Shown one piece after another: positions 19,138 through 37,584 of a DNA stretch of 64,000 nucleotides (its first letter is position 1; every line of letters begins with the position of its first letter). The notes under the pieces are model-generated. The model was not told where the DNA came from. It saw nothing but the letters and a program-made list of their open reading frames with translations, and ran no database searches. The stretch is from Ensifer adhaerens (lineage in GTDB: Bacteria; Pseudomonadota; Alphaproteobacteria; Rhizobiales; Rhizobiaceae). The stretch spans positions 1 through 64,000 of the forward strand of contig NZ_PNFP01000028.1 of assembly GCF_002940685.1 (NCBI RefSeq). The letters are read 5' to 3'. A program made the translations under genes and the position numbers.

Positions 19138-21150
19138 TCACGCCGACCAGATCGCGATATCGACCGGGCCGAGCTTGCGGCCGCCGACGTGGAAGGTCGC
19201 GCCGGCCGGTGCCGGGACATCGACGGCCGACTTGCCGTAATTGAAGGCGAAGGCGAGCTTGCCGCGGCGGGTGATGCGCAGATCACCAAGATCCGGAAGC
19301 GTCTCGACCGAGGCCCAGCCGAGGGCATCGCCGATCACCTTGCCGAGGAAGTCACCCCGCGCGGCGGTTGCGAGGTAGCGCGCCTTGTCGTTGCCGACGA
19401 GCGCCGGGGCGCCATTGCGATAGTCGCCCTCGAAGGTCGCAAGCACGGTTTCGTTGGTGCGAACCGTCTCGCGCCAGACACCGGCCGGATAGGTCTCGTT
19501 GCCGTAGAGCACGCTTTCGGCGTGGAATTCCGGCAGCGACTCGACACGGGCGACGCTGACGTCGATCAGCGCGGCGAGCGGACCCGGCGGCAGGCCCTCG
19601 GGGATATGCATGTCCTCCGTCTTGCTGCCGCTGCGCGGTCCGAACAGCACCTTAGCGCCTGACGCGGCGAGCTTTTCGACGAAGGCCTGTTCCGGGATGA
19701 CGAGATCGGGCGCCAGGACGAGCTGGTAGCCGTCAAGGTCCGAATGCTGGCCGATGATGTCGACGTCGACGCCGAAGCGGGCGACGGTCGAATACCAGTC
19801 GAGCGCGATCTGCGAGGCCAGATAGGTGCGGCCCTGCGGTAGCGCCCGCGTCGCCCAGCGCGAGGTGTAGTCGAGCAGGATCGCGACCTTGGCCTTCTCG
19901 CGGCGCTCACCCTTCGGCAGACGCTTCATTTCCTCGGCAACCTGCGCGACTTCGAGATAGCCCTGGTCAGCCTCGCTGTTCGGAAGCAGCAGGCCGGCAT
20001 GGAACTGCTCCTGCGCAAACGGCACCTGGCGCCATCGGAAATAGGAGACCATGTCGACGCCGTGGGCATAGGCGAGCCAGGTCCACAGCCGCACCATGCC
20101 GTCGGCGGGCGACTGGTTGTGCGAGGCCCAGTTTACCGGGCCCGGCTGCTGCTCCATCACCCAGACGCGGCCGTTGCCGACGGCACGGTAGAGATCGTGG
20201 TTGAAGGCCGGCTGGTCGGGATCGCCGACGCGCAGGTAGCGACCCTTGTCTTCCGAGGAGAGGCGGCCGTTGAGCAGCCCGCCCATCGGATAGACGTCCC
20301 AGGAGGCGATATCGATGTCCTCGCCGACCTTGTAATGGTCGAAGTCGGTGTTCTGCGACATGAAGTTGTGCGTCACCGGACGACCCGGCGAGTGCTTGCG
20401 GATGATGTCGACCTGCGCCTTGTTGAAGCTCTTCACCTGGTCGGAGGAGAAGCGGATGTAATCGACGATATGGGTCGGGCTCGGCTCTTCGACGAGGTTG
20501 TTGGGAAGCTCGACCTCATCGAAGCTCAGGTAGTTCATCGCCCAGAAGGCCGTGCCCCAAGCGCGGTTCAGTTCCTCGACCGTGCCATAGCGGGCCTCAA
20601 GCCATTGGCGGAAGGCGCGCAGCGCCTCATCGGAATAGCTGTAGATCGTGTCGTGGTCGCCGTACTCGTTATCGGTCTGCCAAGCATGGACGAAGGCGTT
20701 CTTGCCATAGCGCTCGGCCATGGCTTCGGAAATGCGCGCCGCCTCGATGCGATAACGGCGGCTGGAGAAGCAGTAGTGGCGGCGGGCGCCGAACTTGCGC
20801 ACCACGCCCTTGACGTCGACGGGCAGGATGTCCGGATAGCGATCGATCAGCCACTTCGGCGGTGCGGCGGTCGGCGTTCCCAGAATGACCTTAAGACCGG
20901 CCTTGCCGAGCACCTCGATCGCGTCGTCCAGCCACTCCCAGTGGAATTCGCCCGAGCGGGGCTCGATCTTCGCCCAGGCGAATTCGCCGATGCGCACCCA
21001 GGCAAGACCGAGCTCGACCATACGGCGGGCATCCTCTTCCCATTTTTCGCGCGGCCACTGCTCCGGATAGTAGCAGACGCCGAGTTCCAGCATGTCGGTC
21101 TGCTGCTCTTTGGCGTTGAAGCGGTTCAATCTCGTCAGGGGCATGTGCAC
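19138..21150 (-). CDS. Beta-galactosidase, glycoside hydrolase family 42
   Basis: 670 residues, usual for GH42. The catalytic acid/base E162 is in WQTDNEYGDHD and the nucleophile E333 in WVMEQQPGPVNW. The N-terminal (beta/alpha)8 barrel is followed by the trimerisation and C-terminal beta domains. There is no signal peptide, so it acts in the cytoplasm on imported galactosides or arabinosides. Possible starts are 21150, 21144 or 21093 (MLELGVCYYPEQW, where family similarity begins). It lies behind its own 32-bp palindrome and next to a LacI gene, and belongs to the sugar ABC importer locus upstream. Confidence 0.94.
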   Translation of the reverse strand: MHMPLTRLNRFNAKEQQTDMLELGVCYYPEQWPREKWEEDARRMVELGLAWVRIGEFAWAKIEPRSGEFHWEWLDDAIEVLGKAGLKVILGTPTAAPPKWLIDRYPDILPVDVKGVVRKFGARRHYCFSSRRYRIEAARISEAMAERYGKNAFVHAWQTDNEYGDHDTIYSYSDEALRAFRQWLEARYGTVEELNRAWGTAFWAMNYLSFDEVELPNNLVEEPSPTHIVDYIRFSSDQVKSFNKAQVDIIRKHSPGRPVTHNFMSQNTDFDHYKVGEDIDIASWDVYPMGGLLNGRLSSEDKGRYLRVGDPDQPAFNHDLYRAVGNGRVWVMEQQPGPVNWASHNQSPADGMVRLWTWLAYAHGVDMVSYFRWRQVPFAQEQFHAGLLLPNSEADQGYLEVAQVAEEMKRLPKGERREKAKVAILLDYTSRWATRALPQGRTYLASQIALDWYSTVARFGVDVDIIGQHSDLDGYQLVLAPDLVIPEQAFVEKLAASGAKVLFGPRSGSKTEDMHIPEGLPPGPLAALIDVSVARVESLPEFHAESVLYGNETYPAGVWRETVRTNETVLATFEGDYRNGAPALVGNDKARYLATAARGDFLGKVIGDALGWASVETLPDLGDLRITRRGKLAFAFNYGKSAVDVPAPAGATFHVGGRKLGPVDIAIWSA

Positions 21151-22340: not shown

Positions 22341-24047
22341 TCACGAAGATTTGGGTCGGCTGAGCGATGCCGCCAGCTGAAGATAGACTGCGGATGTCCA
22401 GGCGAATGCCCGATCGCGAAGGCCCCTCCCCGAGCGCGCGTCGAAGTTTTCGGCCATACCGCTTTTGCTCGCAAGTGAACAGAACTTTTCCGCGACTTTG
22501 CGCGCGAGCTCAATCTTCCCTTGCTGGCGCAGTCCATCCCAGAGAAGCAGCGTCGTCGGCGCCCAGATCGGCCCGCGCCAGTAACCGTCGTCCTCGTAGA
22601 AGGAACTCTTCGGGCTTTCGGTCGCCGGCCCCCATTCGGTGATGAAGCCGCCAGCTACGAGCCGCGCGACAAGCTTCTCGCGCATGTCGGGCGTCAGACG
22701 CGATCCGAGCAGCAGCGGCATGAACTGGATGAGGTTTTCGCCCGGCAGTATCCGCTCCGGGTCCGCAGCGAGCCGGGCGCCAAAGGTCTCGCCGGTCCAG
22801 AGGCGCTCGAAAAGCAGCGCCTGCAGCTCGTCTGCCTTCTGCCGCCACACCGCCTGGCGGTCAGCGTCGTCTTCGAGAAGATCGGCAAGCGTCTCGCAGG
22901 CAAGGATCAGGAAAACGGGCAGATCCGGCGAGATCACCGGGCCGCCTTCGGCAAAGAAGGTGGCGTTGTCCCAGCCGCTATCATTGCCGTGGAAATAGGA
23001 CGGCAGGCTCGCCGCATCCTTACGGCCGTAGGTCAGCCAGTAGTCGACCTGGCGACCGATTGCGTCGCGCAGGTAAGACTTGCGCTCCACTGTGAGGAAG
23101 GACGGATCGGCAGCTGCGATCAGCGACACCGCCCAGCCATGCACCGGCGGCTTGGTGAAGGCGAAGAGCACGTCGCGGTCGTTGATATAGTCCGGCAGCA
23201 GGCCGGAGGCGTCCTGATGGTCGAAGATCGCCGCGAACTGGTCGAAGGCGAGATCCTGATCGAAGGCCGCCACACCGAGCGCGGAGAAGGCGTTGTCCCA
23301 GCTCCAGATGTTGATCATGTGGTTCTTCGACATGTAGATCGCCGGCCGCGTCAGCGCGCCACCAGCAGGAACGCCGTTCGCCCAGAGCAGGTAACTTGCG
23401 AGACGATGTGCATCGTCCTGGCCTTCCACACCCTTCGGAACACGTGCGTGCCATTCGCCGAATTCGGCCGCCGCATCCGAAAGCGCCTCGGCGAACCGGC
23501 CGGGCCGATCAGCAGGCGGCACGGTGCGGAAAAAATCGACATTGCCCTCGAAAATGTCCGCACCCGAAAAGGCGAAGGACACGTCTTCGGAATGGTCGCG
23601 CTGCCAGGCGCCAGCGACCTTCAGGTCACCAGTGATCGCCCGCGGGATGAATTTGACGTTTTCGACCGCGGCCACCAGGCAATCCTCGCCGCTTGGCATG
23701 CGGTAGACATAGTCGTAGCGCGAGCCCTCGAGATGGAAGCGCACGCCGGCCCGTTTGCCTGCGATGTACAGCCTTTCGCCGTCGCCAATGACGAAGCTCA
23801 CCTCGCCCTCGCCGATGCGAGCATCGAGCCGTTCCGGGGAAAGCACGAGCACAGGCGTCACGCTCGCGCCCTCAGCATCGAAAAACTCGACGCGGCAGAG
23901 ACGACCGAGTGACGGCCGCTCATCGCCGCCGGCGACATGGCGGAGATAAAGCGCACGCTCGCCGTCACGGCCGGGCACCCGCATCATCGAGAGCGTCAGG
24001 AAACGGCCCCTGCGGCTGAAGGGGACAAATTCGATATCGAACAGCAT
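22341..24047 (-). CDS. GH63-like (alpha/alpha)6-barrel glycoside hydrolase
   Basis: 568 residues without a signal peptide. The signature segments IWSWDNAFSALG, NDSGWDNATFFAEGG and DGYWRGPIWAPTTLLLWDGL are characteristic of GH63 / MGH1-like glycosidases (YgjK and mannosylglycerate hydrolase relatives). An N-terminal beta-sandwich-like region of about 200 residues precedes the barrel. It probably hydrolyses alpha-linked gluco- or mannosides in the cytoplasm after import. It lies 4 bp downstream of the second sugar permease gene and upstream of lacI, so it is part of the importer operon. Exact substrate is not deducible. Confidence 0.85.
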   Translation of the reverse strand: MLFDIEFVPFSRRGRFLTLSMMRVPGRDGERALYLRHVAGGDERPSLGRLCRVEFFDAEGASVTPVLVLSPERLDARIGEGEVSFVIGDGERLYIAGKRAGVRFHLEGSRYDYVYRMPSGEDCLVAAVENVKFIPRAITGDLKVAGAWQRDHSEDVSFAFSGADIFEGNVDFFRTVPPADRPGRFAEALSDAAAEFGEWHARVPKGVEGQDDAHRLASYLLWANGVPAGGALTRPAIYMSKNHMINIWSWDNAFSALGVAAFDQDLAFDQFAAIFDHQDASGLLPDYINDRDVLFAFTKPPVHGWAVSLIAAADPSFLTVERKSYLRDAIGRQVDYWLTYGRKDAASLPSYFHGNDSGWDNATFFAEGGPVISPDLPVFLILACETLADLLEDDADRQAVWRQKADELQALLFERLWTGETFGARLAADPERILPGENLIQFMPLLLGSRLTPDMREKLVARLVAGGFITEWGPATESPKSSFYEDDGYWRGPIWAPTTLLLWDGLRQQGKIELARKVAEKFCSLASKSGMAENFDARSGRGLRDRAFAWTSAVYLQLAASLSRPKSS

Positions 24048-24051
24048 GCCG

Positions 24052-24864
24052 TTATCCCTTCACCGACGAGCCGACGGCGCCATCCATGATGTAGCGCTGG
24101 GCGACGAAGAAGAGGGCGAGCGGCGGCAGGCAGAGGATCACCGTGATCGCGGCGATCGAGGTCACGTCCACCTCGTGCAGGCCCTTGAACATCGAGAGGC
24201 CGAGCGTCAGCGTGTACTTCGACTGGTCGTTGAGGAAGATCAGCGGTCCGAGATAGTCGTTCCAGGCGTTCATGAAGTGGAAGGTACCGACCAGCACCAG
24301 TGCCGGCATCATCAGCGGCAGATGGATGCGCCAGTAGATGTCGAAGGCGTTGGCGCCGTCCATGCGGGCTGCCTCGTCGATCTCCATCGGCACGGTCATG
24401 ATGTACTGGCGCAAAAGGAAGACGAAGAAGGCGTCGGCGAAATAGGCAGGTACGATCAGCGGCTTCAGCGTATTGATCCAGCCGAGCAGGTTGAACTCCA
24501 TGTAGAGCGGGATCATCTTCACGTCCCACGGGATCATCATGGTGGCGAGCAGCAGGATGAACAGCGGGTCGCGACCGGGGAAGCGGAAGCGGGCAAAGCC
24601 ATAGGCGACCAGCGACGAGGAAATCAGCTGGCCGATGGTCGACAACACCACCACGATCAGCGAGTTGGTGAGGTAGGTGCCAAAGGGCTGCTTGTTCCAG
24701 GCGGCGGCGAAATTCTCCCAGTGCCATTCCGACGGCCAGAACACCGGCGGGAATTGGTAAAGCTCGGCCGAGCTTTTGACCGCCGTCATGAAGGTCCAGT
24801 AGAACGGCGCGATGAACAGCGCCGACAGCAGGATCAGCGCGGAATAGAGCAGCGTCTTACGCAT
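24052..24864 (-). CDS. Sugar ABC transporter permease, MalG type
   Basis: 270 residues starting MRKTLLYSALILLSAL, preferred over a Met 15 bases earlier because GGAG lies 6 bases upstream. Six membrane segments are visible, and the EAA loop reads EIDEAARMDGANAFDIYWRI. It pairs with the MalF-type permease encoded by the overlapping upstream gene (24857). Carbohydrate uptake transporter-1 family; substrate probably an oligosaccharide cleaved by the GH63-like and GH42 enzymes. Confidence 0.93.
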   Translation of the reverse strand: MRKTLLYSALILLSALFIAPFYWTFMTAVKSSAELYQFPPVFWPSEWHWENFAAAWNKQPFGTYLTNSLIVVVLSTIGQLISSSLVAYGFARFRFPGRDPLFILLLATMMIPWDVKMIPLYMEFNLLGWINTLKPLIVPAYFADAFFVFLLRQYIMTVPMEIDEAARMDGANAFDIYWRIHLPLMMPALVLVGTFHFMNAWNDYLGPLIFLNDQSKYTLTLGLSMFKGLHEVDVTSIAAITVILCLPPLALFFVAQRYIMDGAVGSSVKG

Positions 24865-25813
24865 TGCGGTCTCCATCATTCTCGCGGACTTCGCCTTCGT
24901 AATAGACCCAGGCGGCCGACCAGCGCATGACGCCGAGGCTGAGCAGAAGCACGATGATGAACATCACCCAGGAGCCGGCGGCGGCGTAACCCATGTCGAA
25001 ATACTTGAAGGCGTTGTCGTAGATATACATGGCGAAGAAATAGGTGGAGCCGAGCGGTCCGCCCTTGGTCAGAAGCAGAGCGATCGTCAGCTGCTGGAAG
25101 GCAGAGATGATCGATGTGATGAAGGTAAAGAGCAGCATCGGGCCAAGCATCGGCAGCGTGATGAACACCATCTGCGCCCAGCCGGGAACGCCCGAGACGG
25201 TCGCCGCCTCATAGAGCTCCTTCGGGATGGCTTTCAGACCGGTCAAGAGGATCAGCATCGTGCCGCCAAGACCCCAGAGGCTGGCGATGATGATCGCGAC
25301 GATCGCAAGGTTCGGGTCGCCGAGCCAGTTCGGCCCGTCGATGCCGACGAAGGACAGCATGAAGTTCAAAAGGCCGTATTCACGGCTGTAGATCCAGCTC
25401 CAGATCGTCACAAGGGCGACACCGGAGATGACGCTCGGCAGGTAGAAGGCGGTGCGGAAGAAGCCGCTGGCAAACGTGATGTGGTGCAGCATCAGTGCCA
25501 GGAGGAACGACATGACGATGTTGAACGGCACGTAGATCGCCGCAAACTTCACCGTGATCCAGAGGCTTTCCCAGAACTGCGGGTCCTCGAACAGCATGGA
25601 ACGGTAGTTTTCGAGCCCGACGAACGTGCGTTCGCCGACGACCGGCCAGTCATAGAAGCTCATCGTCAACGAGAAGACGAGCGGGCCGAGCGTGAAGAAC
25701 AGGAACCCGAGGATCCACGGGGAGATGAACAGATAGGGTGCTGCATAGCGCGCGATGGCGGAGCGCTTGCGCCTTGCCACCTTTGGCTCTGCACCGGCAT
25801 AGGTCATATCCAT
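24857..25813 (-). CDS. Sugar ABC transporter permease, MalF type
   Basis: 318 residues with the first membrane segment YLFISPWILGFLFFTLGPLV and five more. The EAA loop is PKELYEAATVSGVPGWAQMV. The layout, with a long periplasmic loop after segment one, is typical of the MalF/UgpA branch. Located 19 bp after the binding-protein gene and overlapping the MalG-type gene. Together with the ATPase encoded at the head of the operon it forms the importer. Confidence 0.93.
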   Translation of the reverse strand: MDMTYAGAEPKVARRKRSAIARYAAPYLFISPWILGFLFFTLGPLVFSLTMSFYDWPVVGERTFVGLENYRSMLFEDPQFWESLWITVKFAAIYVPFNIVMSFLLALMLHHITFASGFFRTAFYLPSVISGVALVTIWSWIYSREYGLLNFMLSFVGIDGPNWLGDPNLAIVAIIIASLWGLGGTMLILLTGLKAIPKELYEAATVSGVPGWAQMVFITLPMLGPMLLFTFITSIISAFQQLTIALLLTKGGPLGSTYFFAMYIYDNAFKYFDMGYAAAGSWVMFIIVLLLSLGVMRWSAAWVYYEGEVRENDGDRNA

Positions 25814-25832: not shown

Positions 25833-27062
25833 TTACTTGATCAGCCGCTTGGAGCGGTTGACCGCATCGTCGAGATGCTGCTTGGCATTGCCCTGGTCGA
25901 TCATCGTCGCCTCGATCGCGCGGGCGAGATTGTCCTGGACCTTGCCCCAATTGGCGTTCTTCAGAAACGCGTGGGTCTCGGTGTTGGAGGTCGCCAGAAT
26001 GTCGAAGAAGGGCTTGTAGATCGGGTCCTTGGTCATGCCCTTTTCTTCAGCAACGCTCGTGCGCACCGGCAGGTCGTTGACGCGCATGGCGACGGCTTCC
26101 GGCGAGGAGAAGAACTTGACGAATTCCCAGGCGAGATCCGGATGGGCCGCATCCTTGGCGATCGAGATCGCCGAGACGCCGAGTGCCGAGTGGGCGGTCT
26201 TGTCGCCGAACTTCGGCAGTGGTGCTACGCCATACTTGATGCCGGATGCGTCGATGCCCGACTTCGACCACATGGCGCTCTGGAACATGGCGATCTTGCC
26301 GCCCTTGAACAGCGTGCTGCCGGTCGTGTCGTCGCCGAGGTTCAGCGTGATCGCTTCCTGTTTCTTGGCCATGTCGCCGAACATGTCGAGCACCTGCGCT
26401 GCCGCGTCGCTGTTCATGTAGCCGTCGATCTTCTTGCCGTCGTCGGAAATGTACTTCGTGCCGTTCGACCAGAGGAACTGCTCGAAGTCATAGGGGTCCG
26501 GCTTGGCGTCGACGGCAAAGCCATAGACCTTGTTCGGCTCGTCGCGGAACTTGGCGGCCTTGGCGCGCAGGTCGTCCCAGGTCCAGCCGTCATTTGGTTC
26601 CTCGACACCGGCCTTGGCGAACATGTCCTTGTTGTAGAAAACCACCTGGGTGGTGAAGCCCGAGGGCATGCCGTAGGTCTTGCCCTCGACACGGACCGTG
26701 TTCATCAGGCCCTTCGGGAAATCGTCCGGCTTGATCTCGGCCGCGTCCTTGGCGATCAGGTCGTCGAGCGGCTTCAGCGACGTGTAATATTGCGGAAAGT
26801 TCCACATATACATGACGTCAGGCGGGTTGCCGGCGCCGAAGGCCGCGATCAGCTTCTGATCGTATCCATCTGCGTAAGGTTCGACCTGGACCTTCACGCC
26901 CGGATGCTTTTCCTCGAATTTCTTGGCGATTTCCTGCTGGATCGCCAAGCTTTCGTCCGTATCCCAGGTCGCAAAGCGCAAGGTCTCTTCTGCGCGAGCC
27001 GTTGCGGTTCCGGCGATCGCCAGAACCATCAGCGAGCCGATGATCGACTTCCTGTTGAGCAT
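25833..27062 (-). CDS. Sugar ABC transporter substrate-binding protein
   Basis: 409 residues. A Sec signal MLNRKSIIGSLMVLAIAG ends with an Ala-x-Ala site near residue 23 (TARA). The mature protein begins EETLRFATWDTDESL, typical of family 1 solute-binding proteins for oligosaccharides. The start is decided by AGGAGGAGAAAC before the ATG; a longer frame reaching 27182 enters the ATPase gene out of frame. It is periplasmic and delivers ligand to the MalFG-type permeases encoded downstream. Confidence 0.94.
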   Translation of the reverse strand: MLNRKSIIGSLMVLAIAGTATARAEETLRFATWDTDESLAIQQEIAKKFEEKHPGVKVQVEPYADGYDQKLIAAFGAGNPPDVMYMWNFPQYYTSLKPLDDLIAKDAAEIKPDDFPKGLMNTVRVEGKTYGMPSGFTTQVVFYNKDMFAKAGVEEPNDGWTWDDLRAKAAKFRDEPNKVYGFAVDAKPDPYDFEQFLWSNGTKYISDDGKKIDGYMNSDAAAQVLDMFGDMAKKQEAITLNLGDDTTGSTLFKGGKIAMFQSAMWSKSGIDASGIKYGVAPLPKFGDKTAHSALGVSAISIAKDAAHPDLAWEFVKFFSSPEAVAMRVNDLPVRTSVAEEKGMTKDPIYKPFFDILATSNTETHAFLKNANWGKVQDNLARAIEATMIDQGNAKQHLDDAVNRSKRLIK

Positions 27063-27082
27063 GTTTCTCCTCCTCGTTCGGG

Positions 27083-28231
<1,149 letters not shown>

Positions 28232-28290
28232 CGGGCCCTCCCTGCCGGCGGAGCGCTGCAATAGGGCCAAAGGCTCAAAAACAGCACCAA

Positions 28291-28425: not shown

Positions 28426-31400
28426 TCAGACGCTTAGGCGTCCCAGCGTCTCGTCGAGCGCGTTGAGGAAATAGTCACAATCCTCGACGCTGAAGGGTGC
28501 CGGCGGCTTCACCTTGAGCACATTGTGGTGCGGCCCCTCGCTGCTCAAGAGAATGCGGTGCTTCCGCTTCATCTCGGCGATGACGAAATCGAGCTCGCGC
28601 GCGGCCGGCTCCAGGGTCTCTCGATCCCGCACCAATTCGATGCCGTTGAAGAGGCCATGGCCTCTGACATCGCCGATGATCGCGTGCTTTTGGGCAAGCG
28701 CCCGCGCCCCGTCCATCAGCCTGTCGCCGACGACGCGGCAATGGTGCATCAGCCGCTCATCGCGGATGACGTCGAGCACCGCCAGGCCGATCTCGGCCGA
28801 GACCGGATTACCGCCGAAGGTGTTGAAGTATTCCATGCCATTGGCGAACGAGGCGGCAATCGCCTCCGTCGTGACGACGGCCGCCATCGGGTGGCCGTTG
28901 CCGATCGGCTTGCCCATGGTGACGATGTCGGGAACGACACCCTGCAACTCATGCGCCCACATGTGGCTGCCGACGCGGCCGAAGCCCACCTGCACTTCGT
29001 CGGCAAGGCAGAGGCCGCCTGCGGCGCGCACATGGGCATAGGCCTCACGCAGATAGCCTTCCGGCAGCGACAGCTGACCGCCGGTGCCGAGAATGCCTTC
29101 GCTGAAGAACAGCGCCGGGCGACGGCCGTCGGCGGCAAGCGCTGCCACCTGGTTGCGCACGTCCTCGGCATATTTCCGGCCCGCATCCGCATCGTCATAG
29201 CGATAGCGCCCACGATAGAGATCCGGCATTTCCGAGACCTTCACATGCGCCGCCTGGCCCTCGCCGCCCTTGCCGGCGAACTTGTAGGGGCTGACGTCGA
29301 TCAGGCTCGACAGATGGCCGTGATAGGCATGGTCGACGGTGATGATGTCGCGGTTGCCGGTATAGGCGCGCGCCAGGCGGATCGCGAGATCGTTCGCCTC
29401 GCTGCCGGAATTGACGAAGAAGCAGATGTTCAGCGGATCCGGGAACTGCGCGGCAAGCCTGCGGGAATATTCGACCAGCGAATCGTGCAGGTAGCGCGAA
29501 TTGGTGTTCAGCCGCTGCATCTGCGTCTGCGCCGCCTTGACGACGCGCGGGTGGCAATGGCCGACGTGGCAGACATTGTTGACCATGTCGAGCCAGCGCG
29601 TGCCGTCCTCGTCGATCAGATGCGCGCCCTCGCCGCCGACGATCTTCAAGGGGGTGGCGCTATAGGCAATGCTCAGCGACCGGCCGATGCGACGATGGCG
29701 CTCGCGCACCAGAAAGGCTTTGTCGCGCGGCACAATCACCGAGACCGGGACCGACAGCCCAAGCACGACGCTCGGGTCCGGGCTCACCTCGCGCCAGACC
29801 TGCCACTGGTCGCGCACGCCGACACCATGCATTTGGCCGCCAAGACCGAGATGATCGGTGACGACCTGGAAATGCAGATGCGGCGCCCAGTTGCCATTTT
29901 CGTTTGCGGAACCGAAGGCGGCGAAAACCTCGCCCTTGGCAATCGCCTGCCCCGCGGAAAGCTTCGCGACGCTGTCGCGCGAGAGATGACCGTAGAGCGT
30001 CCAGAAACGCGCACCGCCGTCGATCTCGTGTTCGAGAAGCACGGTTGGGCCGAACCCGTAGGCGACGGCGTCGTCGTGAATGAAGGCGACCTTGCCGGCA
30101 AAAGGTGCGGACACCGGCTCGCCGGCCGGGGCAAAAATGTCGACGCCGAGATGCACCGAGCGCCGAGCGCCCGCCGTCTCGTAGGCATCACCCTGATAGA
30201 TCCCGCGGTCCTCGCCATAAAGACCGACGCCGAAGGCCGCGCCCTCGCGGCCGACCTGCGCCATGATGCGGACTTCGGCTTCCGCCGCATCGAGGCTTGC
30301 CCACTGCGCGGCCTCCGGCCCGGTGGCCGAGAAATCGAACACCGTCACTTTCGGCTTGTCGACCGATGGACGAACGATCGGCGTGAAGTCATGCGCGTTC
30401 TTTTCAAGCCAGCGCACGACGGCGGCCGCATGCGGGATCGGCGCCAGACCGCAGGCGTCGCGGATGCGCGCGATGGCGATCGAATGGTTCTCGCCCTGCA
30501 GACGGTTCAACTCGCGCCAGACATCCTCCTGGCTGACGAGCAGATAGGTATTCTCAGGGTTTTCGCGGATCTGCTTTGCCGCCATGCACATGCTGACGGC
30601 GTAGCGGGTCATGACAAGATCGAAAACCAGTTCGACTTCCGTTTCGCTCAAGCAATTGACCTGGTGGTAGGCGCCGGCAAGGGCGGCAATCGTGCCGACC
30701 GGATCAGCCGAGCCGATCAGCGCATAGGCCGAAGCGACGGCGATTTCGATCACCCTGAAGGTTTCGACCATGTCGCCGAAATCGAGAAGGCCGCTGACCG
30801 TACCGTCCTTGTCGAGCAGCACGTTGTAGTCGTTGGCGTCGTTGTGAATGACCTGCATCGGGCAGGTCGTCAGGCGCGGCAGGACCGTCGAGGCGAAATG
30901 GTCGAGGATCGCGCCGACCGCCGCATGCTTGTCGGCACCATCGATCAGCTCGACATGCTTTCGATGCATGTCGGCGCGGCCGATGTCCCAAGCGTAGAGC
31001 CGCTTGGCACCGGCATGGGAGAAGTCCTCCAGACTGCGGTCGAGGCCGGCAAGCAACCGGCCGAGGCTTTCGGCACTCGCCGCCTCGCGCAGCGGCGCCT
31101 TGGCCCAGGTGTCGCCGGGCAGCCAGGACAGGAGCCGCGCCGTCCGCGAGCCGCGGAGCTCGATCTTGCTGGTAGCGCCGCCTGAGCGAGCGCGAAACGC
31201 CCGCGAGATCGGCAGAGCCGGTGCCTTGGCAGAGAGGTGTTCGAGCACCGCCATCTGCATGTCGAGTTCGTCCGCATCGCCGGCAGCATGCAGCTTCAGC
31301 AGGTACTCCTGGCCATCGGCAGCGGTGACGCGATAGTTGAGATCGTGCTCGCCCGGCAGCGGCGCGAGGTTCGCCTCGATGCCGTAGGTCTCCGTGAGCC

Positions 31401-31452
31401 AGGCGCGGATCGTCGCCAGTTCCCGCTCGGTTCTCAAATCTGTCTCTGCCAT
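28426..31452 (-). CDS. Fusion protein: APH-type kinase, M23 peptidase domain, class III PLP aminotransferase/phospholyase
   Basis: 1008 residues in three domains. Residues about 20-340 are an aminoglycoside-phosphotransferase/choline-kinase fold, with the catalytic VIHNDANDYNVLL near 201 and DFGD near 224. Residues about 420-560 form an M23/LytM-like domain that keeps all zinc ligands (HLGVD at 434-438 and HLHF at 525-528). From about 580 to the end is a class III aminotransferase fold, with GSEAND near 683, DEVQVGFGR near 818 and the PLP lysine in MGKPIGNG near 848. There is no signal peptide. Animal hydroxylysine kinase and phosphohydroxylysine/phosphoethanolamine phospholyases belong to the same two families, so phosphorylation of an amino-alcohol followed by elimination is the best inference. 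Start at 31452 has AGGG upstream. Confidence 0.88.
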   Translation of the reverse strand: MAETDLRTERELATIRAWLTETYGIEANLAPLPGEHDLNYRVTAADGQEYLLKLHAAGDADELDMQMAVLEHLSAKAPALPISRAFRARSGGATSKIELRGSRTARLLSWLPGDTWAKAPLREAASAESLGRLLAGLDRSLEDFSHAGAKRLYAWDIGRADMHRKHVELIDGADKHAAVGAILDHFASTVLPRLTTCPMQVIHNDANDYNVLLDKDGTVSGLLDFGDMVETFRVIEIAVASAYALIGSADPVGTIAALAGAYHQVNCLSETEVELVFDLVMTRYAVSMCMAAKQIRENPENTYLLVSQEDVWRELNRLQGENHSIAIARIRDACGLAPIPHAAAVVRWLEKNAHDFTPIVRPSVDKPKVTVFDFSATGPEAAQWASLDAAEAEVRIMAQVGREGAAFGVGLYGEDRGIYQGDAYETAGARRSVHLGVDIFAPAGEPVSAPFAGKVAFIHDDAVAYGFGPTVLLEHEIDGGARFWTLYGHLSRDSVAKLSAGQAIAKGEVFAAFGSANENGNWAPHLHFQVVTDHLGLGGQMHGVGVRDQWQVWREVSPDPSVVLGLSVPVSVIVPRDKAFLVRERHRRIGRSLSIAYSATPLKIVGGEGAHLIDEDGTRWLDMVNNVCHVGHCHPRVVKAAQTQMQRLNTNSRYLHDSLVEYSRRLAAQFPDPLNICFFVNSGSEANDLAIRLARAYTGNRDIITVDHAYHGHLSSLIDVSPYKFAGKGGEGQAAHVKVSEMPDLYRGRYRYDDADAGRKYAEDVRNQVAALAADGRRPALFFSEGILGTGGQLSLPEGYLREAYAHVRAAGGLCLADEVQVGFGRVGSHMWAHELQGVVPDIVTMGKPIGNGHPMAAVVTTEAIAASFANGMEYFNTFGGNPVSAEIGLAVLDVIRDERLMHHCRVVGDRLMDGARALAQKHAIIGDVRGHGLFNGIELVRDRETLEPAARELDFVIAEMKRKHRILLSSEGPHHNVLKVKPPAPFSVEDCDYFLNALDETLGRLSV

Positions 31453-31465
31453 TTTCCCTGTCCTG

Positions 31466-32158
31466 TCACCACGAAACCCGCTGCCCGTCATAGGCGCGAA
31501 AACTGCCGCTAGCGGCCAAATCTGCCTTGTCGATGATCGCCTTCAGCCCGGCCGCACTCGCCGCCACCGAAATGACGGCGTCGCTGCCGCCCATGTCCGT
31601 CTGCACCCAGCCGGGGTGCAGCGAGACGACGGAAATCCCGTCGCCCTTCAGATCCTGCGCGAGCTTGACCGTCGCCATGTTCAGCGCCGCCTTCGAGCAA
31701 CGATAGGCATAATCGCCGTCGTCGTCGTCGAGCGTGCCTTCGGCCAGCGACCCCGCCCTGCTGCTGATATTGGCGACGACCCGACGTTTGCCGTCCTTAA
31801 GGTTGGCAAGAAGCGCCCGCGTCAGCAGAAGCGGCGCGAGCGCATTGACGCGCATCACCTGGAGAAAGTCGTCTGCCTCAAGCGTCGCCAGACCGCCCGT
31901 GTCGCCGCGCACGGCCGCGTTGTTGATCAGCACATCGATCGCAACACCCCGGAGCGACCGCCCCAAGGCGTCGATCGATGCGGGATCGGCAACGTCCAGC
32001 GTCAGCCGATCTGTCGCATCTTCGACCGGAACAGCTGCCCGCTGGCAGGCGATCACCCGCCAGCCGTCTTCGGCATAGAGCCGCGCGAGTCCCGCGCCGA
32101 GCCCGCGGGAGGCCCCCGTGATCAGGACCGTCGGTCGCCTAGCGGTGCTTGATGTCAT
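31466..32158 (-). CDS. Short-chain dehydrogenase/reductase
   Basis: 230 residues. The cofactor turn TGASRGLG is near residues 14-21, NNAAV is in the middle and the catalytic YAYRCSK carries the YxxxK pair. It overlaps the upstream permease gene by 20 bp and is followed 13 bp later by the fusion gene. In this operon it could oxidise or reduce the aldehyde or semialdehyde released by the PLP enzyme, but SDR specificity cannot be read from motifs. Cytoplasmic, NAD(P)-dependent. Confidence 0.9.
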   Translation of the reverse strand: MTSSTARRPTVLITGASRGLGAGLARLYAEDGWRVIACQRAAVPVEDATDRLTLDVADPASIDALGRSLRGVAIDVLINNAAVRGDTGGLATLEADDFLQVMRVNALAPLLLTRALLANLKDGKRRVVANISSRAGSLAEGTLDDDDGDYAYRCSKAALNMATVKLAQDLKGDGISVVSLHPGWVQTDMGGSDAVISVAASAAGLKAIIDKADLAASGSFRAYDGQRVSW

Positions 32159-33794
32159 ATTTCCGCTCGACCATGTTGACGAGGCTTGCCGCGGCCAACG
32201 TCAGGAAGATGTAGAAGATCGCCGCCGAGTTATAGGGCGCAAACGGCAGGAAGCTTGCCGACTGGAACTCGCGCATCCGCTGGGTGATGTCGCGGATCGA
32301 GAGGATCGACAGAAGCGAGGTGTCTTTCAGGATCGCGATCAGTTCGTTGCCGAGTGGCGGAATGATGATGCGGAAGGCCTGCGGCAGGACGACGAGGCGT
32401 GCCGTCTGCCAGCGGTTGAGGCCGATGCTGCGCGCCGCCTCGACCTGGCCGACGGGAATGGCGTTGATGCCCGAGCGGAAGATTTCGGCAAGATAGGCCG
32501 AATAGGCGAGCGCCATGGCGACGATACCGCGCATCAGGTTCGGCGGATCGAGCACGCCTTGTGTTGCGTCCTTCAGCGCCCCGCTCAAGGGCAGGCCGAC
32601 ATAGAGCACGATCACCAGCATCGGAATGCCTCGGATCGTATCGACGATGAATTCCGAGCCGATCGCCAGCGGATGACGCTGGTGCAGGTAGCCGCCGAAG
32701 GTCAGCAGGCCAAGGATGATCGCAAGCACGGCGACGGTAATGCCGGCGGCGCGATCGCGGTCGTTGAGCGCCTCGGTCTTCCAGAGAACCGGCATGTCGG
32801 CGGGCGCGGCAGCGGCCGGCAACAGCGCCGCCGAAACCCCCTCACCCTTGGCGATCGAGGCCAGCGCCTCCTTGGGCCCGACGAAGGTGCGCACCGGCGT
32901 TTCCGTCTGCGGCGCGCCGTCATACTGGCCGAAACGCACCGCGCTAATCAGGCCCGCCGGCGTGTTGGTGATGATGCCGACCTTGCCGTCGAGCGTGCCG
33001 GCGAGCACATAGGTGTCGCGCGGCTGCATGAGGAACCAGCCGGCAGCAAGGGCGAGCACCAGGGTGGCGATCGCGAAGTAGAGGCTGGTCCGGACCGTCG
33101 AGTGCAGCTGCAGCAACCCGACCCAGACAAGCCCCATGAGCGCCGCGAGGATATAGGCGGCGATCGCCGCGCGAATGGTGGTGGCGACCCCGGCTGCAAA
33201 GGCGATATGGGCGAAGAAGAAAACGAAGACCAGACCCGTACCGTTGATGAGACCGATGATCCAGCGGGCGATGCGCCTCGTCTTTCCGTCGGGAGCGGCA
33301 TCGGAACGGCTGCTCAGGAAATGAAGCCCGAGGCCGACAAGCGTGATGGCCAGATAGGCGGGAAACAGCCAGGCCTCGACGCCCTGCACCATCAGATCCG
33401 CAGCCTCGGTCAATTGCCGTGGCGTCACGCCCTTGACGATCAGCGTCGACTTGAACGGGTCGACACCGTTGGCGACGACGGACGTGATGAAGGGATGGAT
33501 ATTGTGACCGATGACGAGAACAGCGGCCGCGCCGAGATTGAGGAGCGCCGCGACGTTGGCGAGCCGCGGACGCGGCGCCTTGGCGCGCGAGAACACGAGC
33601 ACCGCGATGCCCGATGCAAAGGCGATCGCCAGCGCCAGAAAGCCGGGCACGAAAGCGGACGAGCCGTTCTCGACGCCGAGGATCGCCCGCAGCGAGCGCT
33701 GATAGTCGCCGGAGGAAATGAAGAGATAGATGATGAAGGGCAGCGCGGTCAGGATGATCAGATTGCTCGGACGCACGCTTCTCAGGAACGACAT
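32139..33794 (-). CDS. Oversized amino-acid-type ABC transporter permease with extra membrane domain
   Basis: 551 residues, about twice the usual length. The C-terminal 200 residues are a HisM/GlnP-type permease with the EAA loop GQVEAARSIGLNRWQTARLV. Before it are about seven added hydrophobic segments (such as FVPGFLALAIAFASGIAVLVF-like stretches) and then a roughly 90-residue soluble stretch. That stretch (VGIITNTPAG, VRTFVGPKEALASIAKGEG) looks like part of a binding-protein lobe placed between the membrane parts. The start is supported by GGAGGAATG. No ATPase gene lies in the operon, so the importer must borrow one. Confidence 0.88.
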   Translation of the reverse strand: MSFLRSVRPSNLIILTALPFIIYLFISSGDYQRSLRAILGVENGSSAFVPGFLALAIAFASGIAVLVFSRAKAPRPRLANVAALLNLGAAAVLVIGHNIHPFITSVVANGVDPFKSTLIVKGVTPRQLTEAADLMVQGVEAWLFPAYLAITLVGLGLHFLSSRSDAAPDGKTRRIARWIIGLINGTGLVFVFFFAHIAFAAGVATTIRAAIAAYILAALMGLVWVGLLQLHSTVRTSLYFAIATLVLALAAGWFLMQPRDTYVLAGTLDGKVGIITNTPAGLISAVRFGQYDGAPQTETPVRTFVGPKEALASIAKGEGVSAALLPAAAAPADMPVLWKTEALNDRDRAAGITVAVLAIILGLLTFGGYLHQRHPLAIGSEFIVDTIRGIPMLVIVLYVGLPLSGALKDATQGVLDPPNLMRGIVAMALAYSAYLAEIFRSGINAIPVGQVEAARSIGLNRWQTARLVVLPQAFRIIIPPLGNELIAILKDTSLLSILSIRDITQRMREFQSASFLPFAPYNSAAIFYIFLTLAAASLVNMVERKYDIKHR

Positions 33795-33873: not shown

Positions 33874-34620
33874 CTACTTGAGGCCCCAGTACTTGTTGAT
33901 CAGCTGGTCGAGCGTGCCGTCGTCCTTGATCATCTTCAGGCCTTCGTTGAAGGCCGCGACGTTTTCGTCGCCCTTGCGGAAGACGAGACCGAGCGGATCG
34001 GATTCGAGGTCCTTGATGGCAACGACAAGCTCGCCGGCAAACTCGCGCTCGTAGGCGGCGGCGTTGGCGCCGTTGATGACGACGCCGTCGACGTCCTTGT
34101 TCTTCAGCGCGATGATCGCGGCGCTGAACGTGTCGTAAGCGGCAACGTTCTCCTTGCCGACGACGCTCTCGGCGACCTGGGCATCGGTGGTGTTCGCCTG
34201 GGCGGAGAGCTTTCTGCCGGCGTCCTTGAAGGCTTCGAGCGTGATGCCCTGGTCGTCAGCGCGCATCAGCACGGCCTGGCTGTTGACGATGTAGGGATCG
34301 GAGAAGTCCATCGCCTTCTTGCGCTCCTCGGTGATCGAGACGCCGGAGGCAACGAGATCGAAGCTGCCCTGGTCGAGCGCGGCGAAGATGCCGTCCCACC
34401 CCGTCGTGATGAACTCCGCCTGGCAGTTGATCTTGGCGCAGACCGCATTGACGACATCGACGTCGAAGCCGACGACCTGTCCGGTTGCCGGGTCGATGCT
34501 CTCCATCGGCGGCGAGGTCGTGTCGGAGCCGACCTTCAACAGCTTGCCGCCGAGGTCGGCGGCATGGGACACGCTCGAAGCAAGGGCTGCAACAGCCAGG
34601 GCAATCATCAGTTTTTTCAT
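33874..34620 (-). CDS. Amino-acid-type ABC transporter substrate-binding protein (family 3)
   Basis: 248 residues. The signal MKKLMIALAVAALASSVSHA is cleaved after residue 20. The mature part shows the family 3 pattern KLLKVGSDTTSPPMESID, VVGFDVDVVNAVCAKI and FDLVASGVSITEERKKAMDF. GGAGGAGAACC precedes the ATG. It is periplasmic and should present a polar amino acid or related amine to the large permease encoded next. It is the first structural gene after the lacI gene of the operon. Confidence 0.94.
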   Translation of the reverse strand: MKKLMIALAVAALASSVSHAADLGGKLLKVGSDTTSPPMESIDPATGQVVGFDVDVVNAVCAKINCQAEFITTGWDGIFAALDQGSFDLVASGVSITEERKKAMDFSDPYIVNSQAVLMRADDQGITLEAFKDAGRKLSAQANTTDAQVAESVVGKENVAAYDTFSAAIIALKNKDVDGVVINGANAAAYEREFAGELVVAIKDLESDPLGLVFRKGDENVAAFNEGLKMIKDDGTLDQLINKYWGLK

Positions 34621-34640: not shown

Positions 34641-35714
34641 TTAATTTTGTGTCAGGCGGCCGCCGAGATTGTCGGGCTGGCGCGCGATCAGAGTCGGCCT
34701 GAAGACCTGCCTGAGCGCCTTGGGGTCCTCCCCCTCCATGCGGCGCAGCAGGAACTGTCCGAGGGTGCGGCCAAGCACCTCGATCGGCTGGTAGAAGGTG
34801 GTAATCGGCGGCGTGAAATAGGCGCTGACATTGATGTCGTCATAGGCGATGACGTCGACGTCGACACCGACCTGCCGCCCGAGGCTGCCAAGCCCCGAGA
34901 GCACGCCGAGCGTGGTGGATTCGTTGATGCAGACGAAGGCGGTTGGGGCGTCGTCCCGTTGCAGGAAGTCGATCACCGTCTGCCGGCCGAAATGGGTCGA
35001 GAGATCGCCCTCGGCGATCAGGTCCATCGGCGCATCGAGACCCGCCTCGCGAAACGCGCGGACGAAACCGTCGATCCTGTCGAGCGCATAGGAAAGCCGC
35101 CGTTCCGGATTGACGAGCGCGATCCGCCGGTGGCCGCCGGCGACCAGCCGCGCGGTCGCCGCATGCGCCGCCCATTCGTTGTCGATGTCGACATGGGCAT
35201 AGTCCAGTTCCTTGCGGCAGCGCCCCATCGAAACGAAGGGGAAATGCTCGGCGACGAGCAGGTCGATGCGCGGGTCCTCGGCAAGAATGCCGGAGAAGAT
35301 CAGGCCATCGGCAAGCCCCTGGTCGACGATGCGTCGCGCCGCGTCCGCGCCGTCGGCGGCGTCGCGGATCACATGCACGGACATGCGGTAGTCCGTGCCT
35401 TCGAGCGCCTGACTGATGCCGCTCAGGGTCTGGGTGTATTCGACGCCGTCCCATTCGTAGTCGCGCGCCGCGGTCACCGGCATCAGCACGGCGGCCTGAA
35501 AGCTCTTGCCGGTGCGAAGCGCCATGCCGCGCGCGTTCGCCTGATAGCCGACTTCACGCGCCGCCTTGTAGATGATGTCTCGAGTCGCAGGCGCGACCAC
35601 CGGAGATTCGCGCAAGGCCTTCGAGATCGTGGCGATGGAATAGCCCGTCATCTCGGCCAGGGTCTTGATCGTCGGCGTCGGCGCGCGCCGGGCCCTGTGC
35701 ATCTCAGTCGCCAT
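34641..35714 (-). CDS. LacI-family transcriptional regulator of the kinase/PLP-enzyme operon
   Basis: 357 residues. The DNA-binding part PTIKTLAEMTGYSIATISKAL is followed by a periplasmic-binding-like effector domain. It is paralogous to the LacI protein at 21277-22329. GGGAGGGTGC precedes the ATG. It is the first gene of the operon, lying 52 bp from a pair of AAACGTTT operators, so it is probably autoregulated and controls the transporter, SDR and fusion enzyme. A LacI regulator with an amino-acid-type importer is unusual, since LacI proteins mostly sense sugars. Confidence 0.93.
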   Translation of the reverse strand: MATEMHRARRAPTPTIKTLAEMTGYSIATISKALRESPVVAPATRDIIYKAAREVGYQANARGMALRTGKSFQAAVLMPVTAARDYEWDGVEYTQTLSGISQALEGTDYRMSVHVIRDAADGADAARRIVDQGLADGLIFSGILAEDPRIDLLVAEHFPFVSMGRCRKELDYAHVDIDNEWAAHAATARLVAGGHRRIALVNPERRLSYALDRIDGFVRAFREAGLDAPMDLIAEGDLSTHFGRQTVIDFLQRDDAPTAFVCINESTTLGVLSGLGSLGRQVGVDVDVIAYDDINVSAYFTPPITTFYQPIEVLGRTLGQFLLRRMEGEDPKALRQVFRPTLIARQPDNLGGRLTQN

Positions 35715-36996: not shown

Positions 36997-37584
36997 ATGG
37001 ACAATCACCGCATTACACGGAGATTTCTGCTCGCCGGAAGTCTTAGCCTGTTGGCCGGGTGCAGTTCGACCTGGCAAGGCGTTTCCTTCCCATCCCTGTA
37101 CGGCGGCACGCCGGGCGTCGACCGCCGCTACCGAAAGCGGCACGTCCGATACGACGGCAACGAGCCGGCCGGCACAATCGTTGTCGACACATCGCAACGC
37201 TACCTCTACGCGGTCGAAAATGGCGGATGGGCGATGCGCTACGGAATCGGCGTCGGAGAGGAGGGCCTTACCCTCAAGGGGCGGGCCGTCATCGGAAGAA
37301 AAGCCGAGTGGCCGTCCTGGACACCCACGGCAAGCATGATCCGACGCAAACCGGAACTGGCGCAATACGCCGGTGGGGTTTCCGGCGGCCCTCACAACCC
37401 CTTGGGAGCGTCAGCCCTATACCTCTATCGCAACGGCCAGGACACCAAGTTTCGCCTCCACGGCACGAATGCGCCCTGGACGATCGGGCAGGCCGTTTCC
37501 AATGGCTGCATCCGGCTTACGAACGACGACATCGTCGATCTCTACGCCCGCACGCCAATTGGAACTCAGGTATTGATCATTTGA
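36997..37584 (+). CDS. L,D-transpeptidase (YkuD) lipoprotein
   Basis: 195 residues. A basic N-terminus and hydrophobic stretch end in the lipobox LLAGC (C22), so the protein is lipid-anchored, facing the periplasm. The YkuD domain carries H155 in RLHGTNAPW and the catalytic C171 in SNGCIRL. It forms or edits 3-3 cross-links in peptidoglycan, or attaches proteins to it. Rhizobia have many such enzymes, related to polar growth and outer-membrane anchoring. Cluster with two further lipoproteins downstream suggests an envelope module. Confidence 0.93.
   Translation: MDNHRITRRFLLAGSLSLLAGCSSTWQGVSFPSLYGGTPGVDRRYRKRHVRYDGNEPAGTIVVDTSQRYLYAVENGGWAMRYGIGVGEEGLTLKGRAVIGRKAEWPSWTPTASMIRRKPELAQYAGGVSGGPHNPLGASALYLYRNGQDTKFRLHGTNAPWTIGQAVSNGCIRLTNDDIVDLYARTPIGTQVLII

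What the first reader, a model, noticed from the sequence alone, without database searches (positions are those of the whole stretch)
28426..31452. Three-domain enzyme joining a kinase, an M23 domain and a PLP phospholyase-like domain
One cytoplasmic chain holds an APH-fold kinase with intact HND and DFGD motifs, an M23 domain with all zinc ligands (H434, D438, H525/H527) and a class III aminotransferase fold with its PLP lysine. In animals hydroxylysine kinase and phosphohydroxylysine/phosphoethanolamine phospholyases come from the first and third families. The fusion may phosphorylate an amino-alcohol and eliminate phosphate and ammonia. A zinc-peptidase domain between them, without export signal, has no obvious job and may be a novel amidase, scaffold or channel.
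Basis: partly seen in the sequence, partly recalled or inferred. Interest (0 to 1): 0.8.

Follow-up and report, generated by a model that had tools for sequence, protein, structure and literature searches.

The report
Amino-alcohol kinase–peptidase–phospholyase fusion enzyme
A bacterial protein joins a kinase, a zinc peptidase-like domain and a phosphate-eliminating enzyme in one chain, and the sugar-cutting enzymes encoded around it suggest that it breaks down a sugar-decorated amino-alcohol, perhaps the hydroxylysine of collagen.

Summary
The minus-strand ORF at 28426-31491 (1021 aa; the finding's start is an internal ATG) encodes APH, M23 and class III PLP domains. The architecture is catalogued but functionally unnamed (NCBIfam PRK06148, 'hypothetical protein') and is seen in records from many phyla. 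The PLP domain is closest to human phosphoethanolamine phospho-lyase (51-52% identity, TM 0.96), well ahead of the next enzymes. The APH domain resembles homoserine and aminopropanol kinases. The M23 zinc site is intact in 80 of 82 sequences compared, so it is probably a working hydrolase. The new part is context. In Ensifer, Sinorhizobium and Rhizobium the gene sits with a MalEFGK-type sugar importer, an MGH1-like glycosidase and a GH42 beta-galactosidase, partly interleaved. In Gellertiella and two Paracoccaceae MAGs a GH1 beta-glycosidase sits in the same gene row. The same genome also carries an unfused kinase-like, lyase and aldehyde dehydrogenase cluster. Best reading: glycosidases and the M23 domain free an amino-alcohol, the kinase phosphorylates it, and the PLP domain eliminates phosphate and ammonia. 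My favoured substrate is glycosylated 5-hydroxylysine. Distant lineages show no consistent context, and nothing was assayed. Known kind, unexplained variant.

The parts
28426..31491 (-). fusion gene, 1021 aa (alternative start at 31452, 1008 aa)
   Evidence: ORF; NCBIfam PRK06148; relatives
30664..31353 (-). APH-fold kinase domain (residues 47-276; HND 216-218, DFGD 237-240)
   Evidence: Pfam PF01636; conservation; Foldseek homoserine kinase 2ppq TM 0.79, aminopropanol kinase 6ef6 TM 0.68
29857..30156 (-). M23 zinc peptidase domain (residues 446-545; H447, D451, H502, H538, H540)
   Evidence: Pfam PF01551; ligands intact in 80 of 82 sequences; PDB relatives 2hsi, lysostaphin
28447..29655 (-). 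class III PLP phospholyase-like domain (residues 613-1015; PLP Lys861; NVLKVKPP 990-997)
   Evidence: Pfam PF00202; 6tor 51-52% identity, TM 0.96; alignment
31466..32158 (-). short-chain dehydrogenase, overlaps the fusion ORF
   Evidence: Pfam; beside the fusion in related loci
32139..33794 (-). polar-amino-acid-type ABC permease with a long N-terminal part (551 aa)
   Evidence: Pfam BPD_transp_1 at 359-546; NCBIfam hits below cut-off
33874..34620 (-). family 3 solute-binding protein
   Evidence: Pfam SBP_bac_3
34641..35714 (-). LacI-family regulator (LacI_B)
   Evidence: Pfam
27083..28270 (-). MalK/UgpC-type ABC ATPase
   Evidence: NCBIfam PRK11650 458.4 bits, cut-off 432
25833..27182 (-). 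MalE/GanS-like sugar-binding protein
   Evidence: NCBIfam hits below cut-off
24857..25813 (-). ABC permease
   Evidence: Pfam BPD_transp_1
24052..24879 (-). ABC permease
   Evidence: Pfam BPD_transp_1
22341..24047 (-). MGH1-like glycoside hydrolase (GH63 placement recalled)
   Evidence: Pfam PF22422
21277..22329 (-). LacI-family regulator (LacI_A)
   Evidence: Pfam
19138..21150 (-). GH42 beta-galactosidase
   Evidence: Pfam PF02449, 519.6 bits

Best explanation
The protein is a cytosolic enzyme for breaking down an amino-alcohol that carries a hydroxyl next to a terminal amine. Steps: (1) the APH domain transfers the ATP phosphate to the hydroxyl (inferred from fold and motifs); (2) the PLP domain forms an aldimine with the terminal amine, eliminates phosphate, and the enamine hydrolyses to an aldehyde and ammonia (inferred from its closeness to human phosphoethanolamine phospho-lyase); (3) the M23 domain is a working zinc hydrolase that frees the amine-bearing residue from an imported peptide or amide before phosphorylation (inferred). 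In the window's cluster the substrate reaches the cell as a glycoside, and the MGH1-like enzyme and GH42 (GH1 in other genera) strip the sugars first (inferred from gene order). The favoured substrate is 5-hydroxylysine delivered as galactosyl- or glucosyl-galactosyl-hydroxylysine, free or in a short peptide, giving 2-aminoadipate semialdehyde. My estimates: kinase-phospholyase coupling 0.85, active M23 hydrolase 0.6, glycoside-linked substrate in this clade 0.6, hydroxylysine specifically 0.35. (The M23 figure and the overall figure were lowered slightly when rechecking showed an opposite-strand ORF between the kinase-less relative and its neighbouring peptide-importer genes.)
For: PLP domain: 492.7 bits to 6tor, 314.1 to 5g4i, 191 to dialkylglycine decarboxylase; Foldseek TM 0.96, rmsd 1.3; NVLK motif shared with both lyases where the decarboxylase reads VFRIAPP. 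Kinase: homoserine kinase best, aminopropanol kinase rank 12. M23: ligands intact in 80 of 82 sequences. Own genome contig C8 has, on one strand, two class III PLP proteins (one phospholyase-like, 518 bits to the lyase part of PRK06148), an APH-like stretch (tblastn 25%, E 2e-4) and an aldehyde dehydrogenase. Genome G054 has a 692-aa M23-lyase without kinase, M23 ligands intact. Glycosidases: 12-gene collinear cluster shared with S. meliloti 1021; Rhizobium loci L038 and L058 read permease-MGH1-LacI_A-SBP3-permease-SDR-fusion-GH42; GH1 between permease and SDR in L028, L091, L036, L039. With GH42, two MGH1 and GH1 queries, 24 of 33 window-type loci carry one, against 2 of the other 46. Roseibium L025 has Rbs-type sugar ABC genes just upstream on the same strand.
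Against: No activity was measured. The 24 loci are related species, so they amount to a few events, and three of the four query proteins came from the window's own clade, which favours it. MGH1-like and GH42 genes are common: 33 of 46 and 28 of 46 genomes searched have at least one match. Of 105 neighbour proteins of distant relatives no family was enriched (largest 4 members; 25 of 144 families shown). 9 of 33 window-type loci show none of the three glycosidase types. In Gellertiella an MGH1-GH42 pair lies away from the fusion locus, so that module can live alone. Nothing here distinguishes hydroxylysine from ethanolamine or aminopropanol; linkage preferences are recalled. In the kinase-less relative the peptide-importer genes are separated by an opposite-strand ORF, and that lyase's source of phosphorylated substrate is unexplained. 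Paralogue L004 has lost the M23 site. I know of no report that rhizobia use collagen.
Confidence: 0.4

Rival explanations
1. Same kinase-phospholyase chemistry, but the substrate is ethanolamine, 1-amino-2-propanol or another small amino-alcohol, and the sugar genes serve an unrelated or differently linked glycoside.
For: The closest solved lyase is the ethanolamine-phosphate enzyme and the kinase hit list includes aminopropanol kinase. Relatives in other phyla show no consistent sugar genes nearby. The own-genome paralogue L002 lies beside a family 3 binding protein; none of the nine neighbours scanned there is a glycosidase.
Against: In the window's clade glycosidases sit inside or interleaved with the gene row in several genera. 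A free small amino-alcohol would not need a peptidase domain.
Confidence: 0.34
2. The M23 domain no longer hydrolyses anything; it is a structural or substrate-channelling piece between kinase and lyase.
For: APH and M23 are predicted as one well-ordered unit (pTM 0.92). Own-genome paralogue L004 keeps kinase and lyase but has lost the M23 ligands, so M23 activity is dispensable in at least one relative.
Against: Ligands kept in 80 of 82 sequences from many phyla, and kept with the lyase where the kinase is missing.
Confidence: 0.25
3. The PLP domain is an ordinary omega-transaminase (database label 4-aminobutyrate transaminase) with a kinase attached for another purpose.
For: The class III fold is shared; S. 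meliloti SMb20973, which I believe from recall of locus numbering to be the orthologue (not verified), is listed as 4-aminobutyrate transaminase (PMC12542648, passages).
Against: The two phospholyases outscore the next enzyme by more than 120 bits. PbfA shows that such labels can be wrong for lyases (PMC8154272, passages).
Confidence: 0.05

Closest known systems
NCBIfam NF004799 / PRK06148 ('hypothetical protein', subfamily)
   Same: Whole three-domain chain, residues 20-1017, 1360.6 bits over a 1128 cut-off
   Different: The model carries no function. The window protein belongs to a divergent clade (16 of 61 tree rows, support 100); the own-genome paralogue L002 scores 1659.9
NCBIfam NF004800 / PRK06149 ('aminotransferase')
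   Same: Aligned over residues 29-1016 at 709 bits
   Different: Below its 973 cut-off
Human ETNPPL (AGXT2L1) and PHYKPL (AGXT2L2) phospho-lyases with hydroxylysine kinase HYKK (AGPHD1)
   Same: PLP domain 51-52% identical to ETNPPL, TM 0.96; the lyases act on phosphoethanolamine and phosphohydroxylysine (PMC9283133, one passage); that HYKK is an APH-family kinase is recalled
   Different: Separate proteins in animals without an M23 domain (recalled); HYKK and PHYKPL sequences were not compared here
Aminopropanol kinase of the aminoacetone (RMM) microcompartment of Mycobacterium smegmatis (6ef6)
   Same: APH-fold amino-alcohol kinase (paper seen only as a title in a reference list)
   Different: Only 15% identity in the structural match; no microcompartment gene among the window genes that I scanned
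M23 peptidases: 2hsi, lysostaphin (4qp5), LytM
   Same: Pfam family and zinc ligand pattern; APHLHFQ stretch shared with lysostaphin
   Different: Those are exported cell-wall enzymes (recalled); this domain is internal to a cytosolic-looking chain

Membership tests
PRK06148 three-domain family | Full-length match above the curated cut-off | tested here: met
   1360.6 vs 1128 bits
ETNPPL/PHYKPL-type phospholyase | Class III fold with PLP lysine, closer to phospholyases than to other class III enzymes | tested here: met
   Lys861 in 82/82; 492.7 and 314.1 bits vs 191
ETNPPL/PHYKPL-type phospholyase | Eliminates phosphate and ammonia from a phospho-amine | not testable with these tools
   needs an assay
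Hydroxylysine kinase (HYKK) | APH fold with catalytic HxD and DFG motifs | tested here: met
   D218 and D237/G239/D240 in 82/82; H216 in 71, Tyr in 11
Hydroxylysine kinase (HYKK) | Specific for 5-hydroxylysine; orthology to HYKK | not tested
   no HYKK sequence held; no assay
M23 metallopeptidase | H-xxx-D and HxH zinc/catalytic residues | tested here: met
   80 of 82 sequences; Pfam 63.9 bits vs 28.7
M23 metallopeptidase | Exported to the envelope | tested here: inconclusive
   M23 lies behind a kinase domain with no obvious N-terminal signal by eye; no predictor run
Omega-transaminase | Closest to characterised transaminases | tested here: not met
   phospholyases score highest
Omega-transaminase | Carboxylate-binding Arg near the C-terminus | tested here: inconclusive
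   Lys993 stands where dialkylglycine decarboxylase has Arg; no transaminase alignment was printed and the Arg's role is recalled
RMM aminopropanol microcompartment | Microcompartment shell genes nearby | tested here: inconclusive
   none among the neighbours scanned; the whole window was not scanned

The most novel reading that the evidence does not exclude
The cluster is a complete salvage route for collagen-type glycosylated hydroxylysine. Two importers take up the glycoside or glycopeptide, an MGH1-like alpha-glucosidase and a beta-galactosidase (GH42 or GH1) remove Glc-alpha-1,2-Gal, and one cytosolic protein then cuts hydroxylysine out of its peptide with its M23 domain, phosphorylates it and eliminates phosphate and ammonia: an M23 peptidase working as part of a catabolic small-molecule enzyme.
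Probability: 0.21. Interest if true: 0.75.

Novelty: new variant of a known kind. Interest (0 to 1): 0.52.

Why it matters
A family seen in records from many phyla is catalogued as 'hypothetical protein' (PRK06148) or 'aminotransferase' (PRK06149); naming its reaction would correct many annotations. It also poses a clear question: what does a conserved zinc-peptidase site do inside a small-molecule enzyme? S. meliloti 1021, a genetically tractable laboratory strain, carries the same 12-gene cluster, so the hydroxylysine-glycoside idea can be tested by growth and induction experiments.

Tried and rejected
Microcompartment aminopropanol pathway as a direct match: only the kinase fold fits. Transaminase: disfavoured on score. 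Ectoine/hydroxyectoine use: the permease's best NCBIfam hit is EhuD at 112 bits against a 205 cut-off, and the M24 gene of Gellertiella scores higher for a PepQ-type model (186 bits, cut-off 630) than for DoeA (62 bits, cut-off 613); not supported. A lactose operon reading of the S. meliloti cluster was considered because of GH42 and LacI; the order differs from the lacEFGZK order that I recall, and it leaves the fusion unexplained. Literature: ten searches of this open-licence library showed no title or abstract on the three-domain fusion; I saw listings only, and some were cut (40 of 73, 15 of 52, 30 of 110). The key 2012 paper on hydroxylysine kinase and the 2018 aminopropanol kinase paper are not held. 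I have an uncertain memory that the 2012 paper used bacterial gene fusions as a clue; I could not check it. Passages only were read of PMC8154272, PMC9283133, PMC12542648, PMC4207490 and PMC8007038. Whether the M23 pocket faces the other sites could not be judged: I had no coordinates.

Dead ends and slips: one search aligned a wrongly chosen L012 stretch and was not used. In one search the tenth protein was a wrong reading frame and its empty result was ignored. One search crashed half-way after printing what was needed. Neighbour genes come from a simple longest-ORF picker and include some false ORFs (the GH1 gene of L028 was first hidden by an antisense ORF). One search left out 28 loci (mostly Rhizobiaceae and near-duplicates) and listed 165 neighbour ORFs, 150 of them printed; 105 went into searches were left out (short, already annotated, or not chosen). 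Alignment A1 used 59 of the 82 sequences, the tree 61.
Full report
Observation. The gene is real and as described. The minus-strand ORF 28426-31491 encodes 1021 residues; the finding starts at an internal ATG, residue 14. Pfam places APH at 47-276, Peptidase_M23 at 446-545 and Aminotran_3 at 613-1015, all above cut-off. The chain matches NCBIfam PRK06148 over residues 20-1017 (1360.6 bits, cut-off 1128), a model named only 'hypothetical protein'; PRK06149 'aminotransferase' scores 709 bits, below its cut-off of 973. So the architecture is known to databases, while its function is not named there.

Distribution and conservation. In a phylum-wide sample 8 of 299 genomes matched PRK06148 at E <= 1e-250, so it is widespread but patchy. 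Among 82 full-length sequences (window, 79 loci, two own-genome paralogues) the kinase Asp218 and Asp237/Gly239/Asp240 and the PLP Lys861 are 82/82. The M23 set His447, Asp451, His502, His538, His540 is intact in 80; the exceptions are L026 (His502 to Tyr) and the own-genome paralogue L004, which lost the site. This argues that the zinc site is used.

What the domains are. The PLP domain scores 492.7 bits against human O-phosphoethanolamine phospho-lyase (6tor), 314.1 against an Arthrobacter phospholyase (5g4i) and 191 against the next enzyme, a decarboxylase. The predicted structure (pLDDT 89.6, pTM 0.83) gives 6tor at TM 0.96, rmsd 1.3 and 51-52% identity. Window, 6tor and 5g4i share NVLK followed by KPP or RPP, where the decarboxylase reads VFRIAPP. 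The kinase part alone has no PDB sequence hit at E <= 0.01, and in NCBIfam after the two fusion models its best hits are homoserine kinases below cut-off. By structure (APH plus M23 model, pLDDT 93.3, pTM 0.92) the first hit is homoserine kinase 2ppq (TM 0.79) and rank 12 is the microcompartment aminopropanol kinase 6ef6 (TM 0.68); the 50 rows shown are kinases, so the M23 part was not seen there. By sequence the M23 part matches 28 distinct solved sequences at E <= 0.1, led by 2hsi and lysostaphin.

Two further clues on how the parts work together. First, the same genome has, on contig C8 and on one strand, a class III protein (PRK07481, above cut-off), a phospholyase-like protein (518 bits to the lyase part of PRK06148), an APH-like stretch (tblastn 25% identity, E 2e-4; no NCBIfam match at E <= 1e-20) and, about 1 kb further, an aldehyde dehydrogenase: the expected chain in unfused form. 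Second, genome G054 (same class) has a natural 692-aa M23-lyase protein without kinase, with intact zinc ligands. Genes like those of Dpp, Opp or Nik importers lie 1.5 kb upstream on the same strand, but all score below cut-off and an opposite-strand ORF lies between, so a link to peptide uptake is only suggestive. It also leaves open where that lyase gets a phosphorylated substrate.

Neighbourhood. In the window twelve genes on one strand run LacI_B, SBP3, permease, SDR, fusion, MalK-type ATPase, sugar-binding protein, two permeases, MGH1-like glycosidase, LacI_A, GH42 beta-galactosidase. All twelve are collinear in S. meliloti 1021 pSymB at 68-93% identity. In Rhizobium loci L038 and L058 the order is permease, MGH1, LacI_A, SBP3, permease, SDR, fusion, GH42, so the sugar genes flank the fusion on both sides. 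In Gellertiella (L028), a second genome of the same genus code (L091) and two Paracoccaceae MAGs (L036, L039) a GH1 beta-glycosidase lies between permease and SDR. In L028 and L091 an M24 peptidase gene lies downstream of the fusion. In Roseibium L025 the genes just upstream on the same strand are of an Rbs-type sugar ABC transporter, then a 182-aa ORF without a Pfam match. In the Bacteroidota loci L077 and L081 an MGH1-like gene is the next gene upstream on the same strand.

Counts and control. With the window GH42, the window and L077 MGH1 and the L028 GH1 as queries, one or more is found in 24 of 33 window-type loci (identity to the window fusion 54% or more) and in 2 of the other 46, L077 and L081. 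The 9 without are L025, L026, L027, L029, L031, L033, L034, L035 and L037; L021 counts by a partial GH42 at its contig end. The control is lenient: three of four queries come from the window's clade, and many loci are cut short. Closeness of species means few independent events. In one search seven Ensifer, Sinorhizobium and Rhizobium genomes have their best GH42 within about 8 kb of the fusion by contig coordinates (contig identity assumed; six have no other match). It is seen directly in L019, L020, L021 (partial), L024, L030, L038, L058, L062, L090, L093 and L094 (L093 and L094 repeat the regions of L009 and L010).

Against the reading. In the Gellertiella, Roseibium and Paracoccaceae genomes searched, GH42 is present but not in the fetched fusion stretch. 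MGH1-like genes occur in 33 of 46 and GH42 in 28 of 46 genomes searched. 105 neighbours of distant relatives show no enriched family: the largest has 4 members, and 25 of 144 families were shown.

Tree. The window sequence falls in a clade of 16 of 61 rows with support 100 (Rhizobiaceae, Stappiaceae, Paracoccaceae, Actinomycetota), apart from the own-genome paralogue L002. In 199 genomes of the family, 29 hold a match at E <= 1e-200; 5 have the window type (68% identity or more) and 24 only a 39-45% type. L002 lies next to a family 3 binding protein and, by eye, opposite an Lrp-like coding stretch.

Interpretation. The kinase-phospholyase pairing is the strong part: it follows from domain identity and from the unfused cluster. 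A glycoside-linked substrate in the window's clade follows from differently built glycosidase associations. Hydroxylysine is the best single guess because its phosphate is a natural substrate of this lyase subfamily in animals (PMC9283133 passage), because collagen hydroxylysine carries beta-galactose and alpha-1,2-glucose (recalled), and because it is found in peptides, which would give the M23 domain a job. Ethanolamine and aminopropanol remain open.

Verdict. A catalogued but unexplained fusion, not a new kind of enzyme; the M23 role and the sugar link are the interesting, testable parts.

Noticed in passing
L088 10038-12962 (own genome C45): A second fusion of kinase and lyase with a ruined M23 domain (L004), beside a GntR/UTRA regulator and a HutF-like amidohydrolase; it lies about 1.2 kb from the L002 fusion.
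   Followed up: partly
L095 6217-8295: Natural M23-phospholyase protein without a kinase; Dpp/Opp/Nik-like ABC importer genes lie upstream beyond an opposite-strand ORF.
   Followed up: partly
L089 1072-7324 (own genome C8): Unfused cluster of two class III PLP proteins, an APH-like kinase stretch and an aldehyde dehydrogenase; probably another amino-alcohol route.
   Followed up: partly
window 32139-33794: ABC permease with about 350 extra residues before the permease domain, conserved with the fusion; no amino-acid-type ATPase among the neighbours scanned.
   Followed up: no
L019 and L030, about 2270-2490: Only short matches (38 and 71 aa) to the MGH1-like glycosidase remain before LacI_A, while GH42 is kept beside the fusion.
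   Followed up: no
window 36997-37584: Best NCBIfam hits are L,D-transpeptidases (76 bits, below cut-off), on the plus strand.
   Followed up: no
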